Shown: piece after piece, positions 458 through 13,937 of the stretch
Layout: each line of letters opens with the position of its first letter
Numbering within the stretch: the first letter of the stretch is position 1
Virus record (IMG/VR): IMGVR_UViG_3300042905_002991
Location: 1-64,000 of that record
Direction: 5' to 3' (one strand)
Source: a virus
DNA length: 64,000 nt
The notes under the pieces: generated by a model
The model's database searches: none
What the model was told of the DNA's origin: nothing
Seen by the model: the letters and a program-made list of their open reading frames with translations, nothing else
Program-made: the position numbers and the translations under genes

Positions 458-1131
458 TATTCTCCGAAAGTTGAACTTGCGGCTTCAATCGCAATGTAAT
501 AGGTGATGTCAACAGTTTTGTGCTTAAATCGAGCAAGACCTTTCTTGGCAATTGCAACGTCATACGAACCTTCAAGTAACTTGAAGTTTTCGACCTTCAT
601 CACAACTTTGAATTCCTTACCATTCTCAGCAGTACCAATTTCAATCTTGGACTGATCAGCAGAATCATCCTTCACGTCTGTAGCAATGAAGTGAATTGTG
701 GAACCATCGCTTTCAAACACGAAGTTGGGCGAACCAGAGATGCCAGCACTCTTACGCATCCAATCAAGATCTTCTTGCGAAAGACTGAATGAACAATCAG
801 GCTCACCAAACGTGATTGCCTTCTCAGGTGGAGTTACAATAACTTTCGGCGAGCAATACTTGATGTAATCAGACTTCTTGTTTGCACTAATATTGAGTTT
901 GTCATCGTCAAACGACAACTCGGCATCCTTGTACAAAGATACCTTTGCCAAAAGTTTGTTCAAATCATAAAGAGCGAACTCTTTTGGAAAACTCTCACCA
1001 ACAGTTGCTTCAACGAAGATTGTCTTGAGTGGAGAAATAGTTTTCAAAGTATTGCCAGACTTGAACTGCAAACTTTGATTAATGCCTGAAAAGTTTTTCA
1101 GGACTTGCACAGTATCATCAGAAAGTTTCAT
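457..1131 (-). CDS. 45: Sliding clamp, DNA polymerase accessory protein gp45
   Basis: About 224 residues (T4 gp45 has 228), starting MKLSDDTVQVLKNFSGIN, which parallels the T4 start MKLSKDTTALLKNFATIN. The clamp forms a trimeric ring that tethers the phage polymerase and, with gp55 and gp33, activates late promoters. Later landmarks also fit: ALYDLNKLL, and a C-terminal YYIAIEAASSTFGE like YVVALEADSTHDF of T4. The reading frame extends 60 bases further upstream, but the ATG at 1131 is chosen for this T4-like N-terminus and a GAGG site nine bases before it. The start overlaps the end of gene 1 by 14 bases. A perfect sigma70-like promoter lies just upstream, inside gene 1. Confidence 0.93.
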   Translation of the reverse strand: MKLSDDTVQVLKNFSGINQSLQFKSGNTLKTISPLKTIFVEATVGESFPKEFALYDLNKLLAKVSLYKDAELSFDDDKLNISANKKSDYIKYCSPKVIVTPPEKAITFGEPDCSFSLSQEDLDWMRKSAGISGSPNFVFESDGSTIHFIATDVKDDSADQSKIEIGTAENGKEFKVVMKVENFKLLEGSYDVAIAKKGLARFKHKTVDITYYIAIEAASSTFGE

Positions 1132-1786
1132 AATTAACGACCTCATTTGCTTCAACACGATTATTATATAACGAATCAACCAACTTGTCAACTCTCACAG
1201 TCAACTCATCCAACGAACAATTATTATCCATCACAATATCATAATGCGAACCAATCCAAGCCCATTCACTGAAATGAATTTCTGGATATGCATTGCGCAT
1301 TATTTCTTGTTTGTTATAAAGATTGCATTCACGAGCAAGACTATACCACTCAGGATCATCACCACGACGAACGCGAATAACTTTGCCACCTGATTTTACG
1401 ATTGCATCAATTTCATTTGGGAAACGAACATCAGCAATCACATAGTTATTCCATGGTGCTTGTTCGCAGCGTCGCATCACAGTATGAACCCAGAGGTCAG
1501 GGTGAAATACATCACGACCTGCCTCTGTGCCCATTAGTTGGAGAGCCAATCTTGGTGAAAACTCACAACCGAATTTTTCTGACCACCACTTATCTGGCTG
1601 CTCACGCCATGCTCTAGATCCTGGAGTGTCACCTTCAAGCATGGAACGATTCCAACCGAAGATCGTGGCACAGGCGTCTTTGACGCTATTCGCATAACTC
1701 TCTTTGACGAAATCATGACGATCCACCAAGAGATCTGCAACTGTGCCTTTACCTGCTCCAATAAAGCCAACTAAACCTACAATCAT
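1118..1786 (-). CDS. 1: Deoxynucleoside monophosphate kinase gp1
   Basis: A 222-residue P-loop kinase of the T4 gene 1 family, which phosphorylates dNMPs, including modified ones, to dNDPs for phage DNA synthesis. The N-terminal P-loop GFIGAGKGT is at residues 7-15. Conserved segments include LQLMGTEAGRDVFHPDLWV and YVIADVRFPNEI. It sits between the glycosyltransferase of the DNA-modification island and gp45. The end of the gene carries the gp45 promoter. In T4 gp1 also accepts hydroxymethyl-dCMP; whether this copy handles a modified nucleotide cannot be read from sequence. Confidence 0.88.
   Translation of the reverse strand: MIVGLVGFIGAGKGTVADLLVDRHDFVKESYANSVKDACATIFGWNRSMLEGDTPGSRAWREQPDKWWSEKFGCEFSPRLALQLMGTEAGRDVFHPDLWVHTVMRRCEQAPWNNYVIADVRFPNEIDAIVKSGGKVIRVRRGDDPEWYSLARECNLYNKQEIMRNAYPEIHFSEWAWIGSHYDIVMDNNCSLDELTVRVDKLVDSLYNNRVEANEVVNYETF
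1163..1191 (-). promoter_or_regulatory. Sigma70-like promoter for gp45
   Basis: On the minus strand, TTGACA (1191-1186) and TATAAT (1168-1163) are separated by exactly 17 bases, a perfect consensus. It lies inside the 3' end of gene 1 and predicts a transcript starting about 25 bases before the gp45 ATG, so the clamp gene can be expressed independently of the modification operon. Confidence 0.8.
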
Positions 1787-1801: not shown

Positions 1802-2641
1802 TTAAAGAGAACCGACCCAATTGGCAACTGCAGGCATATCACCAGTGAATGCATAAGTGCCGATATGATGTGTTTTCATCCATGGGCAGAGCCAAATTTT
1901 ACCACCAAGATGACGCCACCACTGGCAGAACATATAATCTTCAGACAAGTAGCGATCTGATCCACCAACTTCCTTCTCAATACCATCCATCATGACCACA
2001 CGCTTGCGATCAATGACGGTATCGAAATAGGCGTGAATGTATCGCTTACCATCGAAGTTGGCTTGACCAACATGGTCTGGACGATAACTAAACTCAGGAT
2101 AGGCTTCTTTAAATTTATCAAAGACTTCACGTTTGACGAGCATGAAGCCAGTACCAATTTCAAGAACTTCAATTGGTTCAGCAACAGAGAATTTTTCAGT
2201 GCCTGGTGCTGGATTGAATACGAAATCACCAGCAACCTTTTCCATTTCAAGAGGCTCAATGTCAGGATGACGCTTCACAGCTTCCTTCACAGCACCCCAC
2301 TTAATGGATTTCTTTGGATATGGACCACCAATAACATCCTTATCAAGAGCAAGCAATGCAACAACATCACGCGGATCAAAATGAATATCAGCGTCGATGA
2401 ATAAGAGATGAGTGTAACCTTCTGCACGAAGGAATTCATCTACAAGATAATTGCGAGCGCGAGTGATAAGAGATTCATTGAAGATGAAAGAGAAACGAAC
2501 TTCAATGCCATATTGAGCGCACAATGCTTGCAAGTCTAAACAAGACTTCAAATACATACCATGCGCCATACCACCGTACATCGGAGTTGCGACAAAGAGT
2601 TTGTTTTTGCGCAAATCCTCAACCTTAACTTCTAACTGCAT
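1802..2641 (-). CDS. GT-A-type glycosyltransferase of the modification island
   Basis: A 279-residue protein with a GT-A-like layout: an N-terminal nucleotide-binding strand (KLFVATPMYGG, about residue 14), the metal-binding motif FIDADIHFDP (about 80-89), GTGFMLVKREVF in the middle, an acidic SEDYMFCQWW motif where the catalytic acid usually lies, and a late HHIGTYAF. No signal peptide or membrane segment is seen. It directly follows the P-loop kinase and precedes gene 1. That position suggests sugar transfer to modified DNA bases, since GT-A enzymes occur in phage base-modification operons, but a protein or surface glycan acceptor cannot be excluded. The start is supported by GGAG nine bases upstream. 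Confidence 0.65.
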   Translation of the reverse strand: MQLEVKVEDLRKNKLFVATPMYGGMAHGMYLKSCLDLQALCAQYGIEVRFSFIFNESLITRARNYLVDEFLRAEGYTHLLFIDADIHFDPRDVVALLALDKDVIGGPYPKKSIKWGAVKEAVKRHPDIEPLEMEKVAGDFVFNPAPGTEKFSVAEPIEVLEIGTGFMLVKREVFDKFKEAYPEFSYRPDHVGQANFDGKRYIHAYFDTVIDRKRVVMMDGIEKEVGGSDRYLSEDYMFCQWWRHLGGKIWLCPWMKTHHIGTYAFTGDMPAVANWVGSL

Positions 2642-2643
2642 AA

Positions 2644-3225
2644 TTATTCACTCCAGTTGTAAAATTTTCTAATATGATCAATAATCTTAGACTGATCATC
2701 GAGATTTTCGTTGACCATTGTCTCTATATAGTCCATGAGTGTCAGCGACCCCATGATATTCGAGATTTTAGTCTTACGAGAATTTTTGAATTTGTCATCT
2801 TGATCATCTTTGCGATCAATGTGACGTTGATCAAGAGTGCTATCCTTGACTGTAAGGATTAGAATCTTGAAATCATTTGGGAATAGTTCAGAAAGGCGAT
2901 CAAGCATTTTGCCATTGAACAAACGATCACCTTCGAAGATCACATTTACACTATGACCATCTGCATTTGATTCATATGCAAGATTACTAAAGAACGCAGT
3001 AGCATCTGGTTGAACTGCCATTGACAAACGATCAGTGCCCTGGAACACATTACCATCATTCACATACTTGCCAAGAATATAAAGATTCAGTTTCTTGGAA
3101 TACATTGCATCAAGAAGTTTCTCTGGCTTCGAAGTAACCCAATCATCAGCCATGGAAATCAATTTAAACATCAAAGTGGTTTTGCCAGTTGCTGGCTCAC
3201 CACCCATAGCAATCACTCTTACCAT
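2644..3225 (-). CDS. P-loop kinase, probable 5-hydroxymethyl-pyrimidine DNA kinase
   Basis: A 193-residue P-loop kinase. The Walker A motif GGEPATGKTT is at residues 8-17; FEGDRLFNGK lies in the middle, and a basic lid-like segment DQRHIDRKDDQ follows. Phages with hypermodified thymine encode P-loop kinases that phosphorylate 5-hydroxymethyluracil in DNA, making the leaving group for an amino acid:DNA transferase. Here the gene follows such a transferase-like gene with a 7-base overlap, which is the main basis for the call. A GGAGG site five bases before the ATG fixes the start. A generic nucleotide kinase is the alternative. Confidence 0.62.
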   Translation of the reverse strand: MVRVIAMGGEPATGKTTLMFKLISMADDWVTSKPEKLLDAMYSKKLNLYILGKYVNDGNVFQGTDRLSMAVQPDATAFFSNLAYESNADGHSVNVIFEGDRLFNGKMLDRLSELFPNDFKILILTVKDSTLDQRHIDRKDDQDDKFKNSRKTKISNIMGSLTLMDYIETMVNENLDDQSKIIDHIRKFYNWSE

Positions 3226-4244
3226 AATGCCTCCAAACCTTCTTTCACTGGTTGTTCATCATCGAACATCCAATCCATTCGTTCTATTCTACCTGTTCTT
3301 AAGAAATAAGTAAACTTTTCTTTGTTGATTGTATTTCTCGGAGCAAGTCTGAGATCAAGAGTTTCATTTCTTGCTTGCCACAAAACATTCCATTCAATAC
3401 CAGTCCAACCGTCGCCTTCTGCTTGATTGATTTCTTCAGACTGGCGATCAAGATAATAACCAAGATATCGACCATGATGTTCACGAAAGATTTTCTTGAA
3501 TGAGCAAAGGCAAGTCTCCATCGTGAAGAAATCGATTTGATTGCTCAGTTGAGGGAATCGAGATCTGGTTTCCTCAAGAATTTCTTTGGCATGGCTTTCA
3601 AGGTCTGCGCATTCCCCAGAAGTGAGTTTAACATCATATTTGTCATCTTGCCCGAGGGCGAGATGCAGACCATTACGATGAGAGCGAGAGCCTGCAAAAT
3701 CGTCAAGCATGAGGCTGTCAGGTACACAAGCAATGCCAGCAGTATGAACAAGATGCTGAAGGTAAAACCAAGTGGAATAGCGACCAAATTTGTGAAGAGA
3801 AGTTTTAAGATTATTCCAAAGATTGTGGAAAGATTGCGTTTCGTTGTCGCCATAATAATTTTCTAGAACCTCACGTTGAGTTTTCTTGCCAATAAACTTT
3901 TGGTAAGATGCGAACATGGCAGGCAAGTGACCTTTGTTCCACTTTGTATCAACTTGGTATCTGAGTCTTTTGTAGTTGTGACTATTCCACCATTCGATAC
4001 GATCAACGGTAGCAAGTTCATAGTCTGGGAATTCATTTTTTAGAACCCATGCAGTTGGCAATTGATAGGTGTTACCATAAAGCCATGCAAGCCAGAGTTT
4101 TTCCTCATCATTGTGTTCGTATCGACGGTGGAGATAGTTTGTCATCCATACCGCTGGATCGCAGTCGCCAAACTGCATCGACCACGCATACCAGCGGATG
4201 AATGACTCGCGCCTCTCTTTAGTTGTTGAACGCAGGGAGGACAT
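3219..4244 (-). CDS. Alpha-glutamyl/putrescinyl thymine pyrophosphorylase-like amino acid:DNA transferase
   Basis: A 341-residue, Trp/Tyr-rich soluble protein resembling the aGPT-PPlase family, whose members replace the phosphate on a modified thymine in phage DNA with an amino acid or polyamine. Visible landmarks are GRYSTWFYLQHL (about 154-165), SLMLDDFAGSRSHRNGLHLA (about 178-197, with the SRSHRN core) and, near residue 245, CLCSFKKIFRE followed by GRYLGYYLDR. It overlaps the ParB-like gene upstream (26 bases) and the kinase downstream (7 bases), so the three are probably translated together. The ATG at 4244 has no obvious ribosome-binding site, consistent with coupling. The clade assignment is from memory of the family. 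Confidence 0.65.
   Translation of the reverse strand: MSSLRSTTKERRESFIRWYAWSMQFGDCDPAVWMTNYLHRRYEHNDEEKLWLAWLYGNTYQLPTAWVLKNEFPDYELATVDRIEWWNSHNYKRLRYQVDTKWNKGHLPAMFASYQKFIGKKTQREVLENYYGDNETQSFHNLWNNLKTSLHKFGRYSTWFYLQHLVHTAGIACVPDSLMLDDFAGSRSHRNGLHLALGQDDKYDVKLTSGECADLESHAKEILEETRSRFPQLSNQIDFFTMETCLCSFKKIFREHHGRYLGYYLDRQSEEINQAEGDGWTGIEWNVLWQARNETLDLRLAPRNTINKEKFTYFLRTGRIERMDWMFDDEQPVKEGLEALW
3286..3314 (-). promoter_or_regulatory. Sigma70-like promoter inside the transferase gene
   Basis: Minus-strand TTTACT (3314-3309), a 17-base spacer and TAGAAT (3291-3286). The same TTTACT box and 17-base spacer recur at three other promoters here. It lies in the 3' end of the aGPT-PPlase-like gene and would drive the kinase, glycosyltransferase and gene 1. 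The -10 box is one base off consensus. Confidence 0.55.
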
Positions 4245-5532
4245 CAACAGTTACATCAAGTTGCATATATTGAATCATATCACGAAGTTTGTCAATGTGC
4301 TTTTCTTGATCATCAATAGCCAATTCATTCTTGCTCTTGAAATACAAAACAATAGCACCCTTTTTCTTTTTCATATTGTACATTCTGTGAACGATATAAC
4401 CAAGGGCAACAGCATGTTCTGCCTTCGAAGCAGTTGCATGAATCGCTGCAACACCTTTCAACTCATACTTCTTCACTTTGTAGTTGTTCAAGAAATTGTC
4501 ATCATAGGCAATCAAATTGTCTTGATACTTTAAAGCATTTTGTTGAGTTGCAAAATCGTTCATAATAGAACGAAACAAACCATTGAGTTTTTTCTTGTCT
4601 TCAGTGATCAACGAGAATCGTTCATAAATCAATTCACGAGCACTGTCGACCTGAAGCGGATCAGAAAGATCAAATCCTTCGCTCACCAAGAAGTTATTGA
4701 TATTTCTCTTGATGTCACCATCTGTATTGGTTTTACGAACAATAAAGTCCTCTTTATTTTCTAAAAGACCAAACAGATCATAGTTGGCATTACGAGTTTT
4801 CTCATCAGCACCAAACTCAGTTTCATTTATATAGACAACAGGAATCTCTTTGAGCGCAGTTCTCGAAACTGCCTCAAGGCGATTATTCCCATTGAGAATG
4901 GTATATACAATTTTGTTTTTATGACGAGAAACAACGACAACTACAGGATCTTTCATCAACCAATCCCAAGCATCTTTGGGGTTTTGATCAAACCGAGATT
5001 TGATCTTACGAACATGGTTAACGTCAATCTGTTCAACGCGAATTTGATTTCTCTTATATGCGTGAACAGTTTTGACAGGTTCAAGAACAACTTTGTATTG
5101 ACCTGACTTTATCGCTTCATGAATTGTTGTTACAGTTGTTTTGTCTTGAACAAAGCGGTCAGTTGGCTTGATGCCTTCAGAACGACCCTCAATCCAATCT
5201 ACGAGTGTTTGCTTATGTTCTTCAGTTAGCAATGACTCATCAATGCAATGCGCATTGTTTGATTTATTGTAGAACATATTTTTGTTCCAAGACATGCCAT
5301 AATCAAGACCAAACCACTCAAGTGTTTGAGCGATATCGTCTTCATGCGCACTACCTTCGAACAATAAAGACTTTTCAAGTTTACCCTTGTAAAAGTCGTC
5401 CCAGAACTGGGCACTAGAGATTGAAGAAATATAATCTAACTTATCGGTTTTGGGGGACTTATAACCAATGTTCATCATCCCATTTTCAATGTTACGAAAA
5501 CCATAAACATAACACACTTTACTAGTCAACAT
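4219..5532 (-). CDS. ParB-like protein with GIY-YIG-like N-terminus
   Basis: About 437 residues. The N-terminus (CYVYGFRNIENG then NIGYKS, residues 7-26) resembles a GIY-YIG nuclease core, although the second triplet is NIG rather than YIG. The middle contains a ParB/sulfiredoxin-type motif, YTILNGNNRLEAV (about 210-222, core N-G-N-N-R), preceded by RVEQIDVNHVRKI. ParB-like domains occur repeatedly in phage DNA-modification operons. The C-terminal third, which includes KKKKGAIVLYFKSK, is unassigned. The ATG at 5532 is chosen because AAGGAG lies six bases before it; an in-frame TTG at 5550 would add six residues. It opens the second half of the modification island behind its own promoter. DNA cleavage, nicking or target recognition are all possible. 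Confidence 0.6.
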   Translation of the reverse strand: MLTSKVCYVYGFRNIENGMMNIGYKSPKTDKLDYISSISSAQFWDDFYKGKLEKSLLFEGSAHEDDIAQTLEWFGLDYGMSWNKNMFYNKSNNAHCIDESLLTEEHKQTLVDWIEGRSEGIKPTDRFVQDKTTVTTIHEAIKSGQYKVVLEPVKTVHAYKRNQIRVEQIDVNHVRKIKSRFDQNPKDAWDWLMKDPVVVVVSRHKNKIVYTILNGNNRLEAVSRTALKEIPVVYINETEFGADEKTRNANYDLFGLLENKEDFIVRKTNTDGDIKRNINNFLVSEGFDLSDPLQVDSARELIYERFSLITEDKKKLNGLFRSIMNDFATQQNALKYQDNLIAYDDNFLNNYKVKKYELKGVAAIHATASKAEHAVALGYIVHRMYNMKKKKGAIVLYFKSKNELAIDDQEKHIDKLRDMIQYMQLDVTVDVLPAFNN

Positions 5533-5602
5533 ATCAAACTCCTTCGGCAAATAACATTATGCCATATAAGGTTAAATTGTCACCACTATTAGCGACAGAT
5601 AT

Positions 5603-5631
5603 ATTATAGGTTATCTAATCGCAAAAGTAAA
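5603..5631 (-). promoter_or_regulatory. Sigma70-like promoter for the ParB-AADT-kinase block
   Basis: Minus-strand TTTACT (5631-5626), a 17-base spacer and consensus TATAAT (5608-5603) in the gap between the GNAT and ParB-like genes. It predicts a leader of about 65 bases before the ATG at 5532. Confidence 0.7.
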
Positions 5632-5639
5632 CAGCAATT

Positions 5640-6146
5640 TTAATAAACTTGCACACATCCACCTTTACCCTTTTTATACACTGCTGCATGTATAACAGGA
5701 TCATTCAGATCATAGATTCCATCGGCGAAATTCTTGCCATTAATCTTGAACATACTCAGCGAACATCCACTTTTCTGTTTTCCCAAGAATTTGAATCCCA
5801 TGGATTCATAGAATACGACTGCATCAGGCTCTGCTGAAACGCGATAGTAACTGGTGCCAAGACCTTGTGCGCGATCAAGAGAGTCTTGAGTGAGTAATCT
5901 TGCAACACCCTTACGTCTATGTTTCGCAAACGTATGAAGCAATTGTAGATTGAAGACATATGGAGTTTTCTTAGATCGTGTCGTGATAATCGCGCCAGCC
6001 AACTCTCCGCCGTCCCAACACCCAATACAGTACTGCCATTGTTCCTGCATGTCAGCCTTTGCCACAAAAGTCTTGGCAAAAGAGTCTGCTTTATCTTCAG
6101 TGATATGCGCGACGAATTCATCGCGACTTGTATCACGCAGCCTCAT
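5640..6146 (-). CDS. GNAT-family N-acetyltransferase
   Basis: About 168 residues with a GNAT fold pattern: a GAIITT strand, LQLLHTFAKHRRKGVARLL (acetyl-CoA loop of the R/Q-x-x-G-x-A type, RRKGVA) and the C-terminal YESMGFKFLGK motif. It would transfer an acyl group to an amine. Such enzymes occur in phage base-modification and amidoligase operons, where they could cap an amine added to a base. The longer frame begins at 6212, but that start would overlap the amidoligase gene by 80 bases; the ATG at 6146 (MRLRDTSRDEF) overlaps by only 14 and is preferred. The true substrate is unknown. Confidence 0.75.
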   Translation of the reverse strand: MRLRDTSRDEFVAHITEDKADSFAKTFVAKADMQEQWQYCIGCWDGGELAGAIITTRSKKTPYVFNLQLLHTFAKHRRKGVARLLTQDSLDRAQGLGTSYYRVSAEPDAVVFYESMGFKFLGKQKSGCSLSMFKINGKNFADGIYDLNDPVIHAAVYKKGKGGCVQVY

Positions 6147-7005
6147 GGAACTCGCGTTTCTTTTCTCCACGTTCCTTTGGATATTTGGTTTGCTGCCATC
6201 CATGATATTCATCCAAATTCCACTTAAATGGTGGAAATTTATAATCAGATTCAGAAAGAATTTCCTTCACTGAGGGACCCTGGTTCAGTGCTGAGTCGAC
6301 GAACTTTTCCACGAATCGAAACTGAGATTCCATTTCCTCACGTTTAGTTGTGGAACGGAAGCAGCGAAACTCAATCGTACCAGTATGCTTCATGCAGTAA
6401 GTATTAATGGCAAATCTAAATGGTCGACCCATTGATACGCCATCTTTGCCAGCAGCATGTAATTTAATAAAATGATCAAAGTCAGTTGCAAGATTGATAA
6501 TGTTGTCGCACATATAGTCAGGCATTGGACGACCACCATCAAACTTCAAATACATCTTTGCGCCTTCTACTTGCTTCATCTCAGAAGTTTCATAGAATTG
6601 ATAACAGGCTTCAATGGTATCTTGTTGATTGTCTTTAATGTAAGCAATCAAACGCTTGAGTCCATCAATATCATTTTTCAATCCTGGAACAAAGACATGA
6701 ATATGTCCATGATTGACGCAGGAAGCAGTAGGCATATTGCCATACTCAATAAACATTTCTTTCAAACGCATGATACGATCAACTTGTTCCTGCCAAGTTT
6801 TAGTTGGCATCATATTGACTTCGCCGCCCATCCATGGCTCTTTGCCAAGTGGATCACAAGCACGATATTGAAATGGTGGATGAAGATTTACAATGTCTGT
6901 TTCAGCATATTCCCATTTGCCGAGAGTTGGGGGAATCTCCATACGACGATCAATATCACCCCATTCAATCTCAGCACCATATGTAAACGTTGACTTATCG
7001 TACAT
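6133..7005 (-). CDS. Amidoligase (COOH-NH2 ligase, glutamine-synthetase-like)
   Basis: About 290 residues matching the putative amidoligase family, an ATP-dependent glutamine-synthetase-like fold that joins a carboxyl and an amine. Visible landmarks: an N-terminal YGAEIEWGDID (Glu pair for metal/ATP), a central NHGHIHVFVPG (the family's HxHV strand) and GTIEFRCFRSTTKREEMESQ. These enzymes are often encoded beside a class II glutamine amidotransferase, which supplies ammonia; here that gene is immediately upstream and overlaps by 11 bases. The ATG at 7005 is chosen because AGGA lies eight bases before it; earlier in-frame ATGs exist. Amide formation on a DNA-linked amino acid is an inference from the neighbours. 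Confidence 0.78.
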   Translation of the reverse strand: MYDKSTFTYGAEIEWGDIDRRMEIPPTLGKWEYAETDIVNLHPPFQYRACDPLGKEPWMGGEVNMMPTKTWQEQVDRIMRLKEMFIEYGNMPTASCVNHGHIHVFVPGLKNDIDGLKRLIAYIKDNQQDTIEACYQFYETSEMKQVEGAKMYLKFDGGRPMPDYMCDNIINLATDFDHFIKLHAAGKDGVSMGRPFRFAINTYCMKHTGTIEFRCFRSTTKREEMESQFRFVEKFVDSALNQGPSVKEILSESDYKFPPFKWNLDEYHGWQQTKYPKERGEKKREFHEAA

Positions 7006-7684
7006 GCTGTAAATCCTTTGCATCATCAATCAAAACATAGTTCTTCTGAAAGATACCTTTGCCAATTGTGGTATAAAAGTTCATACCAATCTCAATAGGA
7101 TTTTTGAGGTCAGCACGAATTGCAATATCTTTCGTTGAAGTAATTATACCGCCATTTGGCAAAGAAGTAAAGTAAATTGGACGCTTACCGTTGCGATAGA
7201 AACGCAGTTTATTTTCTTTGTATAACTCAATTACAGCCATGGAAGCATTCTGAAACTCAAGTAATGGAGACTTCTTTGCCTCAAGAGTATGAAGGATCAA
7301 CTCACTGTCATTTCTGGTTTTGCATTTGTATCCATATAGACGTTCCCAGTTCTCTGGCATCTCTTGTGTGATCACGCCATTATGCACAATCGAAATATTC
7401 TCATTCCATAATGGCTGATTGAACTCAAGATCAGACGTAGAATATCGGCAGTGACCAATTAGATATAGATTGCCATCTTCATTCACACAATTGTTTAGAT
7501 CGAGTGATTCTAAAAACTGTGTGGCTGGTTTAGCCTCAATGCGAGTTTTAACTTCGCCATCACGCACCCAAGAAACACCAGTTGCATGTAATCCGCGAAT
7601 ACTAGACTCGCGAAAAACATCAGCAAGCATAATCAAGTCACGAGAACTTGGGTTCTCAATATAAGCACCAATGATTGCGCACAT
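6995..7684 (-). CDS. Class II (Ntn-type) glutamine amidotransferase
   Basis: A 229-residue single-domain glutaminase. The protein starts Met-Cys (MCAIIGAY), so removal of Met exposes the catalytic N-terminal cysteine typical of the class. Family motifs follow: RGLHATGVSW, IGHCRYST, and IVHNGVI, with NDSELI for the acidic position. It releases ammonia from glutamine for a partner ligase. With no synthetase domain of its own, the amidoligase encoded next door is the obvious partner. The ATG directly follows the TET/JBP stop (TAATATG), implying translational coupling. Confidence 0.85.
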   Translation of the reverse strand: MCAIIGAYIENPSSRDLIMLADVFRESSIRGLHATGVSWVRDGEVKTRIEAKPATQFLESLDLNNCVNEDGNLYLIGHCRYSTSDLEFNQPLWNENISIVHNGVITQEMPENWERLYGYKCKTRNDSELILHTLEAKKSPLLEFQNASMAVIELYKENKLRFYRNGKRPIYFTSLPNGGIITSTKDIAIRADLKNPIEIGMNFYTTIGKGIFQKNYVLIDDAKDLQHVR

Positions 7685-7685
7685 A

Positions 7686-8978
7686 TTAGGCGAACATATT
7701 TTCTAGGGTTGAGATTTCTTCATATGCTTTTGGATGGTATTTTTGAACCATCTCTTTTCCACCAACTCTCTCAAGATAGTCATACCACTCTTGTTCTTCC
7801 CACATTCCTTCTGAAATGCCATTCCAGAGTCTTCGTTGGAGTGGATGTTCTTTGTTTTTTCGACGTGACTCAACATAATTAAATCGATGATCTTCATACT
7901 CTTTGCTTCCAAGTTCGAGCATCTTCTCACGCAGATAACAAACAAGACTTACACGCTCAGCAGTTTCATCTTGTAGTTCAATAGGTGTATTGCCGTGAAT
8001 GTACTCATGATTATTGACAAGCAGCAGGTCACCTGGTCGTACATTCACAGCAATACGAACTTCTGGCAATATGAGATATCCACCTGTATAATTGCCATTA
8101 TTTGAAAGAACGAGAAGATTACTCAACCCATTCGTAAAGTCACCAGCATCGCGATGCGCTGCTGTTCTAAATGTTTTGTTCACTGTGATTGTTGTAAACA
8201 CAGTTTGTGGAACGAGGAATGCTGGGTCAATTTTATCTGCTGCTTCACGTTGAGCAGCATGACGATTTGGTAACAATTCTGCAAAACCGCGATCAAGTGT
8301 TTGTAAAAACGGAAATGACATTTGAAATTTATCAAATGAGTTTTGCGTATATGCTGTCGCACGACCATATGGAATGCGAGGATAACGATCAAACCATCCA
8401 GCAATGCCAGACAAAACTACATTGGCATAAGTTGTGTCAGAGATATAAGTTTCTTCAACACCACGTGCTTCTTCTTTACGATCCTTCACAGACATCTTAA
8501 CTGCTTTCTTGAGCCACTTATCAAAGTCAAAATTATCCTCTTTGACTTTGGCACTCAACCAAACAAGACCACGTGATGAACCTTCGTCTTTATATTTCTC
8601 TCGAAGATTTTCTACTTCTTCAGCAACATCAATCTTGACAACAGAATTTTCTGGCTGCTTCTTGAAGAATTCTAAAACACGCAATTGAAACTCAGTAGCC
8701 CATTCACGACCACCGCATTTCTCACCTTTCGGTCCAGCAGCAAGCCCACGGTTTTGAGTTGGTGTTGCTGCTTCTCTCAATCCAGCATACGCAGCATCTT
8801 GCTCTTGTTTGCTGAAGTAATTTTTACGAAACTTGAATGCAATATTATCTTCGTGTTCACTTCCAAGATAACAATCAGTGTCTTCATTGATGAGAGTGTC
8901 AAAATGAGACTCATCAAGAAATTGACCTAGCAAATGTTCGCAATCAAATTTTGATTTGGCAATAATAACTTTTGTCAT
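7686..8978 (-). CDS. TET/JBP-family 2-oxoglutarate Fe(II) dioxygenase
   Basis: A 430-residue protein. Residues about 260-350 carry a TET/JBP-type double-stranded beta-helix: FRTAAHRDAGDF (iron ligands H275 and D277), GGYLILPEVRIAVNVRPGDL, HEYIHGNTP (distal H328), and ERVSLVCYLREKM (2OG-binding Arg candidates R342/R350). The family oxidises the 5-methyl group of thymine (JBP) or 5-methylcytosine (TET, including phage members) in DNA. The N-terminal 200 residues are charged and unassigned. The gene is first in a run of modification-type genes and has a perfect sigma70-like promoter plus AGGAG. Which base it oxidises cannot be read; the downstream kinase/transferase pair favours thymine. Confidence 0.82.
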   Translation of the reverse strand: MTKVIIAKSKFDCEHLLGQFLDESHFDTLINEDTDCYLGSEHEDNIAFKFRKNYFSKQEQDAAYAGLREAATPTQNRGLAAGPKGEKCGGREWATEFQLRVLEFFKKQPENSVVKIDVAEEVENLREKYKDEGSSRGLVWLSAKVKEDNFDFDKWLKKAVKMSVKDRKEEARGVEETYISDTTYANVVLSGIAGWFDRYPRIPYGRATAYTQNSFDKFQMSFPFLQTLDRGFAELLPNRHAAQREAADKIDPAFLVPQTVFTTITVNKTFRTAAHRDAGDFTNGLSNLLVLSNNGNYTGGYLILPEVRIAVNVRPGDLLLVNNHEYIHGNTPIELQDETAERVSLVCYLREKMLELGSKEYEDHRFNYVESRRKNKEHPLQRRLWNGISEGMWEEQEWYDYLERVGGKEMVQKYHPKAYEEISTLENMFA

Positions 8979-9110: not shown

Positions 9111-9404
9111 TTAGCCCATCGTGACGCTGATAGCATCGCGGTAGAGAGTCTTGCGAGCACGTGCAATTTGACCCTGATCGAGATACTTCTCGAACTGCTT
9201 CGAAGGATTGCCAAGACGATAGGCAAAAACCTTCTCACCACGCGAATTCGTGACGCGATTGGTGTATACAGAGATACCTTCATTGCGTGCGCGATAAGCG
9301 AGGTCAGCAGCATTGTCAACCTTGAACATGGCGCGAACTTGACGCGATGTCACGGTGTTGCCGTCAGCAAGATAAGAAACAAACGAATTAAGAGCATTAG
9401 ACAT
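9111..9404 (-). CDS. Small basic protein, winged-helix-like, unknown function
   Basis: A 97-residue basic protein. The first two-thirds read like a small winged helix: TVTSRQVRAMFKVDNAADLA (helix-turn-helix-like), then SVYTNR, then EKVFAYRLG (a beta-wing ending in YRLG). The C-terminal third is helical (QFEKYLDQGQIARARKTLY). The frame can start at a GTG at 9419, but the ATG at 9404 is preferred because GAAGG lies eight bases before it. It is a single-gene unit with its own promoter, a palindrome over the -10 box, a leader hairpin and a terminator. A DNA-binding or self-regulatory role is a guess. Confidence 0.7.
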   Translation of the reverse strand: MSNALNSFVSYLADGNTVTSRQVRAMFKVDNAADLAYRARNEGISVYTNRVTNSRGEKVFAYRLGNPSKQFEKYLDQGQIARARKTLYRDAISVTMG

Positions 9405-9440
9405 ATTAATAACCTTCACAAAAACACCCCTTCAATAATA

Positions 9441-9986: not shown

Positions 9987-11360
9987 TTAGAACACACCGC
10001 CGTTGCTTCTGCGAACAGCAACCTTCTCAAGAGTCGAGATAATACGGAGTTTGATTTGCTCGCTCGACAATCCTTGATTTCGCAACTCTTCAATCTCCAA
10101 CTCAGAGAATGTCACAGACTCACCCTTATACGAAAAGGTGGTAGAGAGTGTGTTGTAGTCTTTGGTTATGACCAATTCATCTGGACGCGCAGTGGTGGCT
10201 GTGGCTTCAGGAGCCACAGGAGCAGGAGTCGCCTCAGCATCAACCTTCGTATACAGATCCAAGAACGCAGTCTTGGTGTCAGCGTCGAAACGATTCAAGC
10301 ACATCTCAATTGCCTTCAAACGATTGTTGAAGATAGAGAATGCCTTGCTGATATGCACAAGACGACGAGTCGAGATGACTTCATCAACCGCACCATCAGC
10401 AAAAGACTTGCGGATAACCTCAGCCCATGTGATCAGACGATCAATGAACGTCGTGTCAGTGATATTCAGAACAGCGAAATTCTTTTCAAGAATCTTGCGC
10501 TCAGTATTGGCTGGCGGATACTCTTGCTCAACAGTGATCGCGAAACGTTCCAGGAATGCTTCGTTGAGTAAATTGGTGCCGATGAATCGACCATCGTCGC
10601 TGCCCTTGCCCTTCGTGTTCGCAGTCGCAATCACGTTGAAGCCAGCAGCAGGATGAACAACCTCACCAGTCTTTTTGTCAAAGTATGGCTTGCCCTCAAG
10701 AATCGGCTGCAAGCACAGAATGTCTTCCGTGCCGAGATCACACTCATCGAGCAAGAGCACAGCACCACGACGCATCGCAGTGATCACTGGTCCTTCACGA
10801 CGCACAGTATTGCCATCGACCAATTCATAAGAACCAATCAGATCAGACTCATCAGTGCGTTTCGTGATATTCACGCGGATCAATTCACGTTTGAGCGCAG
10901 CACAAACCTGCTCAATCATGAACGTCTTGCCATTGCCAGACAAGCCAGTGATATAAATGGGATAGAATATTTGGGACTTGATGATGTCACGCAAGTCATT
11001 GTAGAATCCAAACGGAACATATGTTTCGTTGCGATCAGGCACAAACGACTCGGTGAGATTTTGCGCACGGCGAGAAGCAATGTTCACAACCTGCGCAACC
11101 ATCGCAGCAGCGGCAACAGGTTCAGGTTGCGCCACCGACGCAGGAGTGATGCAGCCAACGTTCTTGGGAACGATATTGTACTGACCGCGACCAACCTTGC
11201 GCTCACGCAGAATGAAGTATGGGAAATTGGGAATCCCGTTCTTCTTGTTCAAACAATAGTCATTCAGTTCCTTGACCGAGACCACATCTTTGTCGAAGTG
11301 CTTGTGCAATTGTTCAAGCACAGCAATCTTCGCATTCGCATCATAATTAGATTTTCTCAT
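9987..11360 (-). CDS. cobS: CobS/MoxR-like AAA+ ATPase
   Basis: About 457 residues. The N-terminal 70 residues look like a small helical module. The AAA+ core has Walker A GLSGNGKT (about 136-143), a TDESDLIGSYEL loop, Walker B VLLLDECDLG, sensor region IATANTKGKGSDDGRF and LNEAFLERFAI. This layout matches the CobS/MoxR branch, which works with VWA-domain partners; CobS is the ATPase of aerobic cobaltochelatase, and cobS-like genes are known in marine T4-like phages. The CobT-like gene two genes upstream is the likely partner. An Ala/Pro-rich linker precedes a C-terminal segment of about 70 residues. A GTG at 11372 is an alternative start. Confidence 0.78.
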   Translation of the reverse strand: MRKSNYDANAKIAVLEQLHKHFDKDVVSVKELNDYCLNKKNGIPNFPYFILRERKVGRGQYNIVPKNVGCITPASVAQPEPVAAAAMVAQVVNIASRRAQNLTESFVPDRNETYVPFGFYNDLRDIIKSQIFYPIYITGLSGNGKTFMIEQVCAALKRELIRVNITKRTDESDLIGSYELVDGNTVRREGPVITAMRRGAVLLLDECDLGTEDILCLQPILEGKPYFDKKTGEVVHPAAGFNVIATANTKGKGSDDGRFIGTNLLNEAFLERFAITVEQEYPPANTERKILEKNFAVLNITDTTFIDRLITWAEVIRKSFADGAVDEVISTRRLVHISKAFSIFNNRLKAIEMCLNRFDADTKTAFLDLYTKVDAEATPAPVAPEATATTARPDELVITKDYNTLSTTFSYKGESVTFSELEIEELRNQGLSSEQIKLRIISTLEKVAVRRSNGGVF

Positions 11361-11378
11361 TTCATCACTCACTGAAAA

Positions 11379-11588: not shown

Positions 11589-11655
11589 AAGACAATTATG
11601 GCTGTTTTCCCGCTAAAACGCAATAGAAAAAACCCGAATAAAATCAATAACTTAC
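11589..11655 (-). promoter_or_regulatory. Repeated leaderless promoter module, copy A
   Basis: Minus-strand module beginning at the preceding gene's stop with GTAAGTTATTGATT, then a T-rich block, -35-like TTGCGT (11623-11618), a 17-base spacer and -10-like CATAAT (11600-11595). Only six bases separate the -10 box from the ATG at 11588, so the mRNA should start on the start codon. The same module occurs at 13938-14004 and 14214-14281. Confidence 0.65.
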
Positions 11656-13937
11656 GCCACCGCCAGTTCTTCGGCTAGTTTCGTGAGGAGGAGACGATTG
11701 CTCTTCTTGCTACCCACGTTCTTGGAAAACTCGCGAGCCATCTTATTCTTGTTCATATCGCTGGTGATCTCAAGTTTGTCATCAACGATGTTAGTGTTCG
11801 GAAGAGCAACATAGAAATACTTGTCATATCCGAGACGCTCAACGATAAGATAATTGTGTTCGCGGAAACATTTCTTGGCAACATCTTGTTGATCATGCGA
11901 CTTGTCAGCAATAAGATACTTCATGTCACGTTGAATGGCTTTCTTGTTACCAACAAAGAAACCAAGATGCTTACAACCAGTCACATCGGCAACCAACTCC
12001 GTGATCGCTGCTTGCATATAATAATTATTGGCCAACTTAACTTTCTTCTTGGTCTTTTTGTCAATCAGATAGACAACAGATCTGCGACGATCGTCGTAGA
12101 AACCAGAGTTTGTGTCCATCGGAGGATATAAAAGATTGTTGCCACCATCACCGTCAGTCAGATACACAACGTTGCAAACATCCAACTGATGCTTGTTCTG
12201 GAACGCAGTAATGATTCCGCGAGAAGCAAGCAAAGTTTCGATGAACGGAGTGCCATTCAAACCAAAGCCAGAAGTGTCCCAATTGTATTGCCAGTTGCCG
12301 TGATCGGTATCATTTGAACCATAACTATCATAGCAGCGACCATACTCATTCGCAACGACGCACATCGCATTGAACGCACGACGATATTGCACAGGCGACA
12401 GTGAAGAACCAATCAGATGTTTCAGATGGAACCAATTACTCGTCATCGTCATGTCAACAGCGGGATTAGAGACGAAACGTTTCTGCGTCTTCATCATCTC
12501 GCGCAACTTCTTGTTATCATAGCAATCGTCGCTGAAGCCATAAACTTCAAACGGGACTTTGGCAAGTTTGCAGAACGAAGCAAGCACAAGCATTTGCTCA
12601 ATCGTATTGCGGAGAATGTCGCCCATCGAACCAGACATATCAACGAACATGATGAAGCCATGATTCTTACCCTTCGGCACAACGGTGATCTTCTTGAAGA
12701 GATCATTGCTGAACTTGTACTTGTGCAGCACGTTCATGTTCAACTCACCAGTTCGAGCAGTCTGTGTCCGAGCATACTCGCTGGCTTTCTTGCGCATCTC
12801 AAATTCTTTCAGAATATGCATGATGACTTTCTTGTTGTTCGTGTTGAACTTGCGAACACACTTCTGAACAACAGTATCGTATGCAATACCGTGATGACCA
12901 TAACGACGATCAGTATCAGCAACTTGCGCACGGAAGAATCGCTCAAGATCATTCACAACTTCCGTGTTCGGAAGGATGATGTTCTCAAGAACAGCATCAG
13001 GCAACTCATACATGAAGATTTTGCCAGTCTCGTTGACCAATTCCTGCTCACGCTGACGGAAATTGCGATCAGTTACAGACTGCGGCTCATCTTCATCTTC
13101 TTGTTCTTCTTCATCATCACCGTCACCAGAAGAATACTGGTTGCTGTCAGATTCTTCTTCATCTGACTCAGTTTGATTGTCAGAATCTTCAGCATCAGTG
13201 CCGTCTGATTCTTCGTCTAGATCAGAGTCATCGTTGCCGTCGATGTTATCTTCATAGTCAGAATCATCACCAACGTCATCGTACTCATCAGAATCTTGTT
13301 GATCCTGCTGACTTTCTTCCTTCATCTGCTCTTGAAGGTCTTGTTTGTTTTGAATCTTGTTTTGCTCGTTTTGTTTGGTGTAGTCATACACACGACGAGC
13401 AATGTCAACAACTTGATCCCAAGTTTCAGCAGCCTCAACTTCGCGAACAATCTCACGCTCGAAATCATTGAATTCAACAATGACATGTGAACCCATCTTG
13501 AAACGCAAATTGATGCGATCAATCAGGTTCAACTTGCTGAGGTCGTCGAGTTTCTTGATGCCGAAGAAGTCACGCTCATATAATGATGCATATGCACGAG
13601 CGAAAGATTTTGAAAGTCCAGGGAACTTGCGTTTGACAAGTTTCTCAATGCGAGCATCTTCGATGACGTTCAAAAAGTCTTTGAACTTCTTGTTGTCTTC
13701 GCTGTTCTTGATCTCATTATGCCAGCCCTGCTCAGGTGTATTCAGAGCATGACCAACTTCGTGACCTGTCAGCAAGTCATACAAGTCGCCGTCCATGTCC
13801 TTCCAAACAGGAAGAACCATCGTGCGATTCTTGAGGTCGAAGTATGCCGTTCGAACGTTTTGGTGCGAGACCGTGATATTCTCAGAAGCCAAGAGTTTGG
13901 CAAGAATAGATTTAGATGTCTGTAAATTCGTTTTCAT
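11652..13937 (-). CDS. cobT: CobT-like zincin/VWA protein
   Basis: A 761-residue protein in three parts. The N-terminal region has a zinc-metalloprotease signature HEVGHALN (H59, E60, H63) and a possible third ligand in NVIEDARIE (about 90-98). A strongly acidic Asp/Glu/Ser linker spans residues about 210-300. The C-terminal half holds a von Willebrand A domain with the MIDAS motif FVDMSGSMGD (about 430-440) and YLTDGDGG. This architecture matches CobT, the VWA subunit paired with the CobS ATPase; MoxR ATPases and VWA proteins generally work as chaperone-like pairs. True cobalt chelation would also need CobN, not present here. A protein-remodelling or proteolytic role in infection is as likely. 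Confidence 0.75.
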   Translation of the reverse strand: MKTNLQTSKSILAKLLASENITVSHQNVRTAYFDLKNRTMVLPVWKDMDGDLYDLLTGHEVGHALNTPEQGWHNEIKNSEDNKKFKDFLNVIEDARIEKLVKRKFPGLSKSFARAYASLYERDFFGIKKLDDLSKLNLIDRINLRFKMGSHVIVEFNDFEREIVREVEAAETWDQVVDIARRVYDYTKQNEQNKIQNKQDLQEQMKEESQQDQQDSDEYDDVGDDSDYEDNIDGNDDSDLDEESDGTDAEDSDNQTESDEEESDSNQYSSGDGDDEEEQEDEDEPQSVTDRNFRQREQELVNETGKIFMYELPDAVLENIILPNTEVVNDLERFFRAQVADTDRRYGHHGIAYDTVVQKCVRKFNTNNKKVIMHILKEFEMRKKASEYARTQTARTGELNMNVLHKYKFSNDLFKKITVVPKGKNHGFIMFVDMSGSMGDILRNTIEQMLVLASFCKLAKVPFEVYGFSDDCYDNKKLREMMKTQKRFVSNPAVDMTMTSNWFHLKHLIGSSLSPVQYRRAFNAMCVVANEYGRCYDSYGSNDTDHGNWQYNWDTSGFGLNGTPFIETLLASRGIITAFQNKHQLDVCNVVYLTDGDGGNNLLYPPMDTNSGFYDDRRRSVVYLIDKKTKKKVKLANNYYMQAAITELVADVTGCKHLGFFVGNKKAIQRDMKYLIADKSHDQQDVAKKCFREHNYLIVERLGYDKYFYVALPNTNIVDDKLEITSDMNKNKMAREFSKNVGSKKSNRLLLTKLAEELAVA

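What the first reader, a model, noticed from the sequence alone, without database searches (positions are those of the whole stretch)
1802..8978. Candidate DNA-base hypermodification island: TET/JBP + GATase + amidoligase + GNAT + ParB/GIY-YIG + aGPT-PPlase + kinase + GT
Seen: eight adjacent minus-strand genes, mostly overlapping or touching, with motifs for a TET/JBP dioxygenase, class II glutaminase (Cys2), amidoligase, GNAT, ParB-like protein, aGPT-PPlase-like protein, P-loop kinase and GT-A glycosyltransferase. Known: JBP/TET oxidise methyl groups of pyrimidines in DNA; in thymine-hypermodifying phages a DNA kinase phosphorylates 5-hydroxymethyluracil and an amino acid:DNA transferase substitutes an amino acid. 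Inferred: here the hydroxyl may be made after replication by the dioxygenase rather than through a hydroxymethyl-dUMP synthase, followed by kinase, transferase, amide formation, acylation and/or glycosylation. The full combination is not one I recognise.
Basis: partly seen in the sequence, partly recalled or inferred. Interest (0 to 1): 0.93.

Follow-up and report, generated by a model that had tools for sequence, protein, structure and literature searches.

The report
Phage cassette that hypermodifies thymine
A phage common in metagenome data carries a swappable set of enzymes that probably oxidises thymine in its own DNA and then decorates it with amine and amide groups, likely to shield the DNA from bacterial defences; the core chemistry is known in kind, but this starting step and this set of decorators look like a new variant.

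Summary
In detail: eight minus-strand genes at 1802-8978, all under purifying selection. Profiles and folds place them as a TET/JBP dioxygenase, class II glutaminase, GS-fold carboxylate-amine ligase (amidoligase), GNAT, nuclease-ParB-like protein, amino acid:DNA transferase (ADDT; best fold match the 5-phosphomethyl-dU glycinyltransferase of phage PaMx11), P-loop kinase and GT-A. Reading them as a thymine hypermodification island is largely right. No thymidylate-synthase-family hydroxymethylase and no C5-cytosine methylase was found in relatives of 173, 197 and 161 kb (completeness unstated), so TET acting on thymine is the likely source of the hydroxymethyl group. Two genes probably do not belong: the ParB-like protein is an optional insert (30 of 46 clusters), and the GT-A is a lineage gene also found without this TET. 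New here: between TET and GT-A, relatives swap whole cassettes (amino type or glycosyltransferase alone); the glutaminase tracks the transferase (52 of 52 clusters), even where no amidoligase lies there (16 of 52). I therefore favour ammonia-fed amination to 5-aminomethyl-dU, then amide capping; this is inferred. The core TET-kinase-transferase logic was predicted earlier (Iyer 2013, recalled). New variant of a known kind.

The parts
7686..8978 (-). TET/JBP 2-oxoglutarate/Fe(II) dioxygenase (430 aa), proposed thymine 5-methyl hydroxylase
   Evidence: Tet_JBP 3.6e-24; H275, D277, H328 and R342 invariant in 12 homologues (their role as iron and 2-oxoglutarate residues is recalled); profile reaches TET2 structures at 1.4e-5
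6995..7684 (-). stand-alone class II glutamine amidotransferase domain (229 aa, Cys2), called GAT2 here
   Evidence: GATase_6 3.8e-10; C2, H78, R80, N102, G103, D126 invariant in 14 rows; between TET and PPl in 52 of 52 clusters
6133..7029 (-). carboxylate-amine ligase (amidoligase, glutamine-synthetase fold; 298 aa), called AmL here
   Evidence: Amidoligase_2 in 11 of 18 rows, 0.023 in the window protein; model pLDDT 81.5; GS, glutamate-cysteine ligase and YbdK folds among 50 entries at Z 8.7-9.8
5640..6212 (-). GNAT acyltransferase (190 aa)
   Evidence: Acetyltransf_10 2e-15
4219..5550 (-). nuclease-ParB-like protein (443 aa): optional, probably mobile insert in the cassette, not a pathway enzyme
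   Evidence: ParB_N 0.023; no such gene matched in 16 of 46 clusters, five query types in 30
3219..4247 (-). amino acid:DNA transferase / aGPT-PPlase2 family (ADDT; 342 aa), called PPl here
   Evidence: ADDT 4.6e-20; model pLDDT 86.7; best solved fold 8z2m, 5-PmdU glycinyltransferase, Z 18.7
2644..3225 (-). P-loop kinase (193 aa), proposed 5-hydroxymethyl-dU DNA kinase
   Evidence: Ploopntkinase3 in 8 of 11 aligned rows, not in the window protein itself; a kinase follows PPl in 58 of 58 clusters in view
1802..2641 (-). GT-A-like glycosyltransferase (279 aa): conserved right-hand border of the swapped block, not tied to TET
   Evidence: phrog_1574 2.9e-62; 63 phage records against 9 records with this TET

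Best explanation
A cassette that hypermodifies thymine in the phage's own DNA after replication. Step 1: TET oxidises the 5-methyl of thymine to 5-hydroxymethyluracil. Step 2: the P-loop kinase phosphorylates that hydroxyl (5-phosphomethyl-dU). Step 3: the ADDT-type transferase displaces the phosphate with an amine. In this subfamily I think the amine may well be ammonia released from glutamine by the glutaminase, giving 5-aminomethyl-dU; the alternative is an amino acid, as in known ADDTs. Step 4: the GS-fold ligase joins a carboxylate to the new amine, and the GNAT acylates a free amine, giving a capped, amide-bearing thymine. The product would shield DNA from nucleases. Shown by computation: family and fold assignments, conserved residues, linkage, and that no other hydroxymethyl source was found in large relatives. 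Inferred: substrates, order, products and purpose. Core (steps 1-3 without naming the amine) about 0.85; ammonia as the amine about 0.4; caps in step 4 about 0.6.
For: TET, ADDT, GATase and GNAT profiles. PPl fold: 8z2m/8z2n 5-PmdU glycinyltransferase, Foldseek probability 1.00, E 0.011-0.029, TM 0.56/0.64 for 8z2m; Z 18.7, rmsd 3.3, 252 aligned, next other protein Z 10.7. AmL fold: GS superfamily, Z up to 9.8, rmsd 3.6, 182 aligned. PPl followed by a kinase in 58 of 58 clusters in view; kinase has an ADDT-type neighbour in 70 of 71. Neither PF00303 nor PF00145 matched in the 173, 197 and 161 kb relatives, while ThyX, which makes plain thymidylate (recalled), is in 2 of these 3. GAT2 lies between TET and PPl in 52 of 52 clusters: 32 with AmL+GNAT, 15 with another GNAT and no AmL, 4 with a second AmL type, 1 (L233) with nothing else; P0003 has no match in L233's 161 kb record while 3 positive controls rang. 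Conversely AmL stands without a like GAT2 in L234 and in phage Simon (a 19% match on the other strand at 8e-4 in Simon), the latter beside HMUDK_hel 3.8e-42 and Thymidylat_synt 2.2e-15, i.e. in a cluster of the classical 5hmdU kind. A Tet_JBP-like gene, an ADDT relative and Ploopntkinase3 (4e-72) are adjacent in Mycobacterium phage VioletZ (its Tet_JBP score, 26.8 bits, is under the cut-off of 34.9). L166 keeps the set in another order.
Against: No biochemistry was found for these proteins. Completeness of the large records is not stated. Cultured phage Cr30 has TET, ADDT and kinase but also a PF00303 gene (3.9e-113), so TET need not be the only hydroxymethyl source everywhere. The 52 clusters are related phages (PPl 64-100% identical), so the GAT2-PPl link is partly shared descent; GAT2 could also serve AmL in 36 of 52. 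A 26%-identical PPl in L229 with TET and kinase has no GAT2; the 40% identity rule left it out of the 52. The kinase matches neither HMUDK_hel nor HMUD2. DLP_6 and C48C1 have TET without ADDT. The PPl Foldseek E-values are above 0.001 and the AmL Z is only moderate.
Confidence: 0.75

Rival explanations
1. Close to the first reader's scheme: PPl attaches an amino acid, and GAT2 plus AmL work as a pair that amidates its carboxyl group; GNAT acylates its alpha-amine.
For: Known ADDTs use amino acids (best fold match is a glycinyltransferase); GS-fold enzymes can use ammonia (recalled); GAT2 and AmL genes overlap in the window and co-occur in 36 of 52 clusters; PaP3 has a GATase and an amidoligase side by side.
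Against: GAT2 is kept in 16 of 52 clusters without AmL at the locus, including L233, where nothing else lies between TET and PPl; AmL stands without a like GAT2 in L234 and phage Simon.
Confidence: 0.35
2. TET acts on 5-methylcytosine, as in described phage TET systems, and the cassette decorates cytosine.
For: TET profile reaches TET2; phage TETs that act on 5mC have been described (Burke 2021, recalled, not held); TAGT, which adds a sugar to glucosylated hydroxymethylcytosine in T2/T6 (passages), takes the place next to TET in some relatives.
Against: No C5-cytosine methylase match in 16 of 16 distinct records searched over, the 161-197 kb ones included; the solved ADDT-fold enzyme acts on 5-phosphomethyl-dU. 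A host methylase is not excluded.
Confidence: 0.1
3. Two unrelated modules sit side by side: TET-PPl-kinase modifies DNA, while GAT2-AmL-GNAT makes a small molecule or modifies protein or cell wall, as proposed for other phage amidoligases (Iyer 2009, recalled).
For: GAT2-like and amidoligase genes occur in PaP3 with genes annotated as S6 glutaminyl transferase and gamma-glutamyl cyclotransferase, and no annotated DNA-modification gene in the 12.6 kb read.
Against: GAT2, AmL, GNAT, PPl and kinase are missing as a block at the locus in 15 GT-B and 4 TAGT clusters; GAT2 is in 52 of 52 PPl clusters; AmL relatives stand in a 5hmdU-type cluster of phage Simon and next to 7-deazaguanine genes in Vibrio phage 2.275.O.
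Confidence: 0.1

Closest known systems
Thymidine hypermodification of phages M6, ViI and phiW-14 (5hmdU, then DNA kinase, then transferases; PMC6449724, passages)
   Same: ADDT-family transferase beside a kinase (phiMAM1 and Cygsa01 of the ViI kind); decoration after replication; acetyltransferases among known tailoring enzymes (Lee 2022, recalled).
   Different: There 5hmdU is made as a nucleotide; here no PF00303 gene was found and TET is present. The kinase goes with Ploopntkinase3, not HMUDK_hel or HMUD2. Glutaminase and amidoligase are extra.
TET/JBP systems of phages predicted by Iyer et al. 2013 (recalled; paper not held), and Mycobacterium phage VioletZ gp2-gp4
   Same: Tet_JBP-like gene, ADDT relative and Ploopntkinase3 in a row in VioletZ; hydroxymethyl made in DNA as the starting point.
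   Different: No GAT2 or AmL match in the 7.8 kb of VioletZ read; its transferase is nearer the ADDT407 type (38%) than the window's (27%).
PaMx11 gp46/PUGT, 5-phosphomethyl-dU glycinyltransferase (8z2m/8z2n)
   Same: Same fold as PPl: Z 18.7, 252 aligned.
   Different: 11% identity; glycine is its amine. 5-NmdU is named in the title of that work (seen only in a reference list; the route through a FAD enzyme is recalled); here a direct ammonia route is proposed.
Base J of kinetoplastids (JBP + glucosyltransferase; recalled)
   Same: Relatives of types C and D have TET followed at this locus by a glycosyltransferase alone, the same two-step logic on thymine if TET acts on T.
   Different: The phage enzymes scanned are of Glycos_transf_1 and TAGT families; substrate untested.

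Membership tests
TET/JBP dioxygenases (PF12851) | profile match over the curated cut-off | tested here: met
   85.3 bits against 34.9
TET/JBP dioxygenases (PF12851) | HxD...H iron ligands and 2-oxoglutarate-binding Arg (roles recalled) | tested here: met
   H275, D277, H328, R342 invariant in 12 rows
TET/JBP dioxygenases (PF12851) | oxidises 5-methylpyrimidine in DNA | not testable with these tools
   biochemistry needed
ADDT / aGPT-PPlase2 (PF18724) | profile match over the curated cut-off | tested here: met
   72.8 bits against 26.2
ADDT / aGPT-PPlase2 (PF18724) | fold of a solved enzyme of this chemistry | tested here: met
   8z2m Z 18.7, rmsd 3.3, 252 aligned, model pLDDT 86.7; Foldseek E 0.011-0.029, probability 1.00
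ADDT / aGPT-PPlase2 (PF18724) | transfers an amino acid to phosphorylated 5hmU | not testable with these tools
   the amine may be ammonia here; assay needed
Classical 5hmdU pathway (M6/ViI type) | TS-family dUMP hydroxymethylase (PF00303) | tested here: not met
   none in G000, G001, G008, G009; records of unstated completeness, so a fragment could hide one
Classical 5hmdU pathway (M6/ViI type) | HMUDK_hel or HMUD2 kinase | tested here: not met
   PF18723 in 0 of the 4 records G000, G001, G008, G009; of the 6 searched only phage Simon rang. The window kinase matches neither. PF18747 was not searched in whole records
P-loop nucleotide kinase 3 (PF18751) | profile match | tested here: inconclusive
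   not in the window protein, but in 8 of 11 aligned rows, best 1.3e-19
Amidoligase_2 / GS-fold carboxylate-amine ligases (PF12224) | profile match | tested here: inconclusive
   0.023 in the window protein, under cut-off; 11 of 18 rows match at 0.01 or better, best 1.5e-7
Amidoligase_2 / GS-fold carboxylate-amine ligases (PF12224) | glutamine-synthetase-type fold | tested here: met
   50 entries shown at Z 8.7-9.8, rmsd 3.4-5.1, GS, GCL, YbdK, PafA and Dop among them; moderate Z, model pLDDT 81.5
Class II glutamine amidotransferases | Cys2 nucleophile and glutamine-site residues (roles recalled) | tested here: met
   GATase_6 40.3 bits against 27; C2, R80, N102, G103, D126 invariant in 14 rows
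TET-associated glycosyltransferase (TAGT, PF20691) | profile match of the GT at 1802-2641 | tested here: inconclusive
   no match up to E 0.1, but HMMER filters drop most weak matches; TAGT does match L199 and L230
ParB/Spo0J-like proteins | ParB_N profile over cut-off | tested here: not met
   15.2 bits against 26.3; weak PHROG match 0.002

The most novel reading that the evidence does not exclude
A glutamine-dependent DNA aminase: the class II glutaminase channels ammonia to the ADDT-fold transferase, which aminates TET-made, kinase-activated 5hmU to 5-aminomethyl-dU in DNA; a glutamine-synthetase-fold ligase then builds amide bonds on the base, so that the phage grows amide or peptide-like side chains on thymine. 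The whole block is exchanged at one genomic locus for TET plus glycosyltransferase, a phage counterpart of base J.
Probability: 0.35. Interest if true: 0.8.

Novelty: new variant of a known kind. Interest (0 to 1): 0.62.

Why it matters
If right, phages make hypermodified thymine without hydroxymethyl nucleotides, by oxidising thymine in place as kinetoplastids do for base J, and then use ammonia and amide ligation rather than only amino acids or polyamines. The locus swaps amino and sugar decorations as blocks, which gives a natural series for asking which decoration defeats which bacterial defence, and a source of enzymes that write amines and amides on DNA. It also makes directly testable whether phage TET enzymes act on thymine.

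Tried and rejected
Rejected: (1) ParB-like protein as a pathway enzyme: of 46 clusters with GNAT and PPl in view, 30 hold a nuclease-ParB gene of one of five query types and 16 have no such match (14 of these with a gap of 2 to 21 bases, L160 76, L174 611 bases not examined); related proteins also stand upstream of TET in L043, L046, L048, L050. (2) The GT-A as the pathway's glycosyltransferase: 63 phage records hold it, 9 hold this TET. (3) That L072 carries two transferase-kinase pairs, as the listing first suggested: the second was a weak overlapping hit. (4) The host: TET in genome contigs gave 4 loci at 35-39% identity and no host.

Led nowhere: PPl against solved structures by sequence (chance matches only; profile, none up to E 10); GATase against solved structures; NCBIfam, weak matches only. 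Not done: a TET tree (rows were prepared, only the GT-A tree was built); complex modelling of GAT2 with PPl; residue mapping on 8z2m; Cr30's PF00303 gene was not sorted into synthase or hydroxymethylase; PPl, GAT2 and kinase were not searched for elsewhere in the type C and D records.

Counts: 237 loci fell into 115 clusters at 97% identity over 1,500 bases or more. The 52 counts clusters with a PPl hit of 40% identity or more and TET upstream in view; L229 (26%), L004 (another type) and L166 (TET downstream; GAT2 present) lie outside it. Fetch lists keep the 80 best per scan (of 144, 168, 226 and 591 or more confirmed candidates; 12 of 12), so counts are of near relatives. In one search, 12 of 13 loci lacking window-type PPl had no GAT2 match and L198 had one weak one (19%, 8e-4, other strand). 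The GT-A tree is a quick one, with 6 of 42 inner branches starred and one very long row (L004); its 17 changes compare with a shuffled mean of 25.4, so types are also partly inherited.

Full report
What was checked. The window is the first 64 kb of an 83,389-bp virus record, a T4-like phage by its sliding clamp and dNMP kinase. Eight minus-strand ORFs lie at 1802-8978 as reported. Tet_JBP, ADDT, GATase_6 and GNAT profiles match over their cut-offs; amidoligase, kinase, ParB and GT matches are weak in the window proteins. Relatives support the amidoligase (Amidoligase_2 in 11 of 18 rows) and the kinase (Ploopntkinase3 in 8 of 11); the GT belongs to phrog_1574, of unknown function. In the pairs computed dN is far below dS for all eight genes (several distant pairs saturated, ParB one pair only).

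Folds. The PPl model (pLDDT 86.7, 17-row alignment) matches best the 5-phosphomethyl-dU glycinyltransferase of phage PaMx11: Foldseek probability 1.00, E 0.011-0.029, none under 0.001; VIA Z 18.7 over 252 residues at 3.3 A, with the next other protein, a queuine salvage enzyme, at 10.7. Among viral models the best are ADDT-type proteins. The amidoligase model (pLDDT 81.5) matches the glutamine synthetase / glutamate-cysteine ligase / YbdK / PafA superfamily: Foldseek E 5.2e-4 at best, Z 9.8 at best over 182 residues. These Z values are moderate and a shared fold does not show the reaction.

Relatives. Scans with TET, PPl, AmL and ParB, a TET profile and one genome scan, with annotated phages, gave 237 loci in 115 clusters. 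Between TET and the GT-A the block varies: A, GAT2-AmL-GNAT-(nuclease slot)-PPl-kinase; B, GAT2-another GNAT-PPl-kinase; C, a glycosyltransferase alone (Glycos_transf_1 7.5e-9 in L032; 15 clusters); D, a TAGT-like glycosyltransferase alone (4 clusters; TAGT 5.4e-11 in L199; L230, outside the GT-A group, also has one, 4.8e-19); E, GAT2-glycosyltransferase-second AmL type (Amidoligase_2 1e-6)-LMW phosphatase (1.7e-16)-PPl-kinase (L094); F, another ADDT type and kinase without GAT2 (L215, L072, Cr30); and one minimal TET-GAT2-PPl-kinase (L233). On a tree of the neighbouring GT-A, 45 rows of seven types need at least 17 changes where 6 is the minimum and shuffles average 25.4; starred branches alone force at least 3, 5 and 4 changes for types C, A and B. 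So the block has been exchanged repeatedly at one locus. Most contigs of a second group (L155-L178) have the same set without GT-A, dNMP kinase or clamp beside it, and L166 keeps the set in another order.

Which genes belong together. PPl is followed by a kinase in 58 of 58 clusters in view; the kinase has an ADDT-type neighbour in 70 of 71, the exception being L234. GAT2 lies between TET and PPl in 52 of 52 clusters, and AmL in 36 of these. Clusters with the other ADDT types have no GAT2 there: 2 of 2 and 1 of 1. Blast with 14 GAT2 sequences against 13 loci lacking window-type PPl found one 19% match, in L198. AmL stands without a like GAT2 in L234 and in phage Simon, where it neighbours an LMW phosphatase, HMUDK_hel and a thymidylate synthase-family gene. 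From this I infer that GAT2 serves PPl and that AmL is a separate step. Shared descent weakens the first inference, since the 52 are related (PPl 64-100% identical).

Source of the hydroxymethyl group. PF00303 was not found in the window's record nor in G001 (173 kb, identical cassette), G008 (197 kb, type C) and G009 (161 kb, minimal type); PF00145 not in the latter three. Over the two calls for each family, 16 distinct records were searched: 1 of 16 had PF00303 (Cr30) and 0 of 16 had PF00145. ThyX is in G008 and G009, not G001. Completeness of these records was not given, and several of the 16 are fragments. The best reading is that TET makes 5hmU from thymine in DNA.

Mechanism. Kinase before transferase follows from known 5hmdU phages, where 5hmdU in DNA is phosphorylated by a DNA kinase and then substituted (PMC6449724, passages). 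That the amine is ammonia, giving 5-aminomethyl-dU, is my inference from the GAT2 pattern; 5-NmdU as a DNA hypermodification appears in the title of Wen et al. 2024, seen only in the reference list of PMC11946847; its expansion as 5-aminomethyl-dU is recalled. AmL would then join a carboxylate to an amine and GNAT acylate; type B would stop at acylation, L233 at the amine, types C and D at a sugar.

Compared with the known. The Pfam names ADDT, Ploopntkinase3 and TAGT show that such parts have been named before. Iyer 2013, Lee 2018 and 2022, Burke 2021 and Wen 2024 are not held, and what I say of them is recalled. A jumbo-phage survey notes that TET/JBP is absent from the phages it covers (PMC7824862, passages). 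TAGT adds a second sugar to glucosylated hydroxymethylcytosine in T2 and T6, and stands without the two T4-type glucosyltransferases in 288 of 753 phage genomes (PMC13216743, passages). VioletZ shows a TET-like gene, an ADDT relative and the kinase in a row in a cultured phage. The glutaminase-transferase coupling, the amidoligase in this setting, and the block exchange did not show in the listings of searches; the library lacks the main papers, so this is weak evidence of novelty.

Verdict. A real thymine hypermodification cassette, found in many metagenome contigs, new as a variant, with a testable and unusual proposal for the amine. Two of the eight genes should be set aside.

Noticed in passing
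window 9987-11372 and 11652-13937: A MoxR-type ATPase (phrog_249, annotated porphyrin biosynthesis, 6.4e-113) and a 761-aa protein (phrog_459, annotated peptidase, 2.8e-181) stand next to the cassette; the first lies in one locus with TET in 50 clusters.
   Followed up: partly
window 9111-9419: A 102-aa ORF just upstream of TET recurs (47-100% identity) beside TET in cassette types A to E of the GT-A-bearing group; function unknown.
   Followed up: no
window 1118-1191: The dNMP kinase and sliding clamp ORFs overlap by 74 bases in the longest-ORF reading; the clamp probably starts further in.
   Followed up: no
L094 5358-5801, L198 8860-9381, L234 5421-5864: A low molecular weight phosphatase gene follows an amidoligase of the second type in three settings (L234 by blast only), possibly part of the same chemistry.
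   Followed up: partly
L234 4495-10100: A contig in a Parcubacteria MAG holds an amidoligase relative, LMW phosphatase, FAD oxidoreductase (DAO 9.9e-24), Ploopntkinase3 (2.2e-11) and TET in one run; perhaps a phage.
   Followed up: partly
L229 4333-5007 and L072 4680-5462: An N6/N4-type DNA methylase (3.2e-17, L229) and a 261-aa possible methyltransferase (L072, no significant profile) follow TET where the GAT2 block would stand.
   Followed up: partly
L197 7866-8978: In Vibrio phage 2.275.O an amidoligase relative (29% to P0003) sits beside 7-deazaguanine/queuosine-type genes and a nucleophile aminohydrolase.
   Followed up: no
L002 and L003: Stenotrophomonas phage DLP_6 and phage C48C1 carry this TET without a PF18724, PF00303 or PF00145 match in the whole record; near TET are a nucleotidyltransferase-type protein (DLP_6) and a UDP-galactopyranose mutase (C48C1).
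   Followed up: partly
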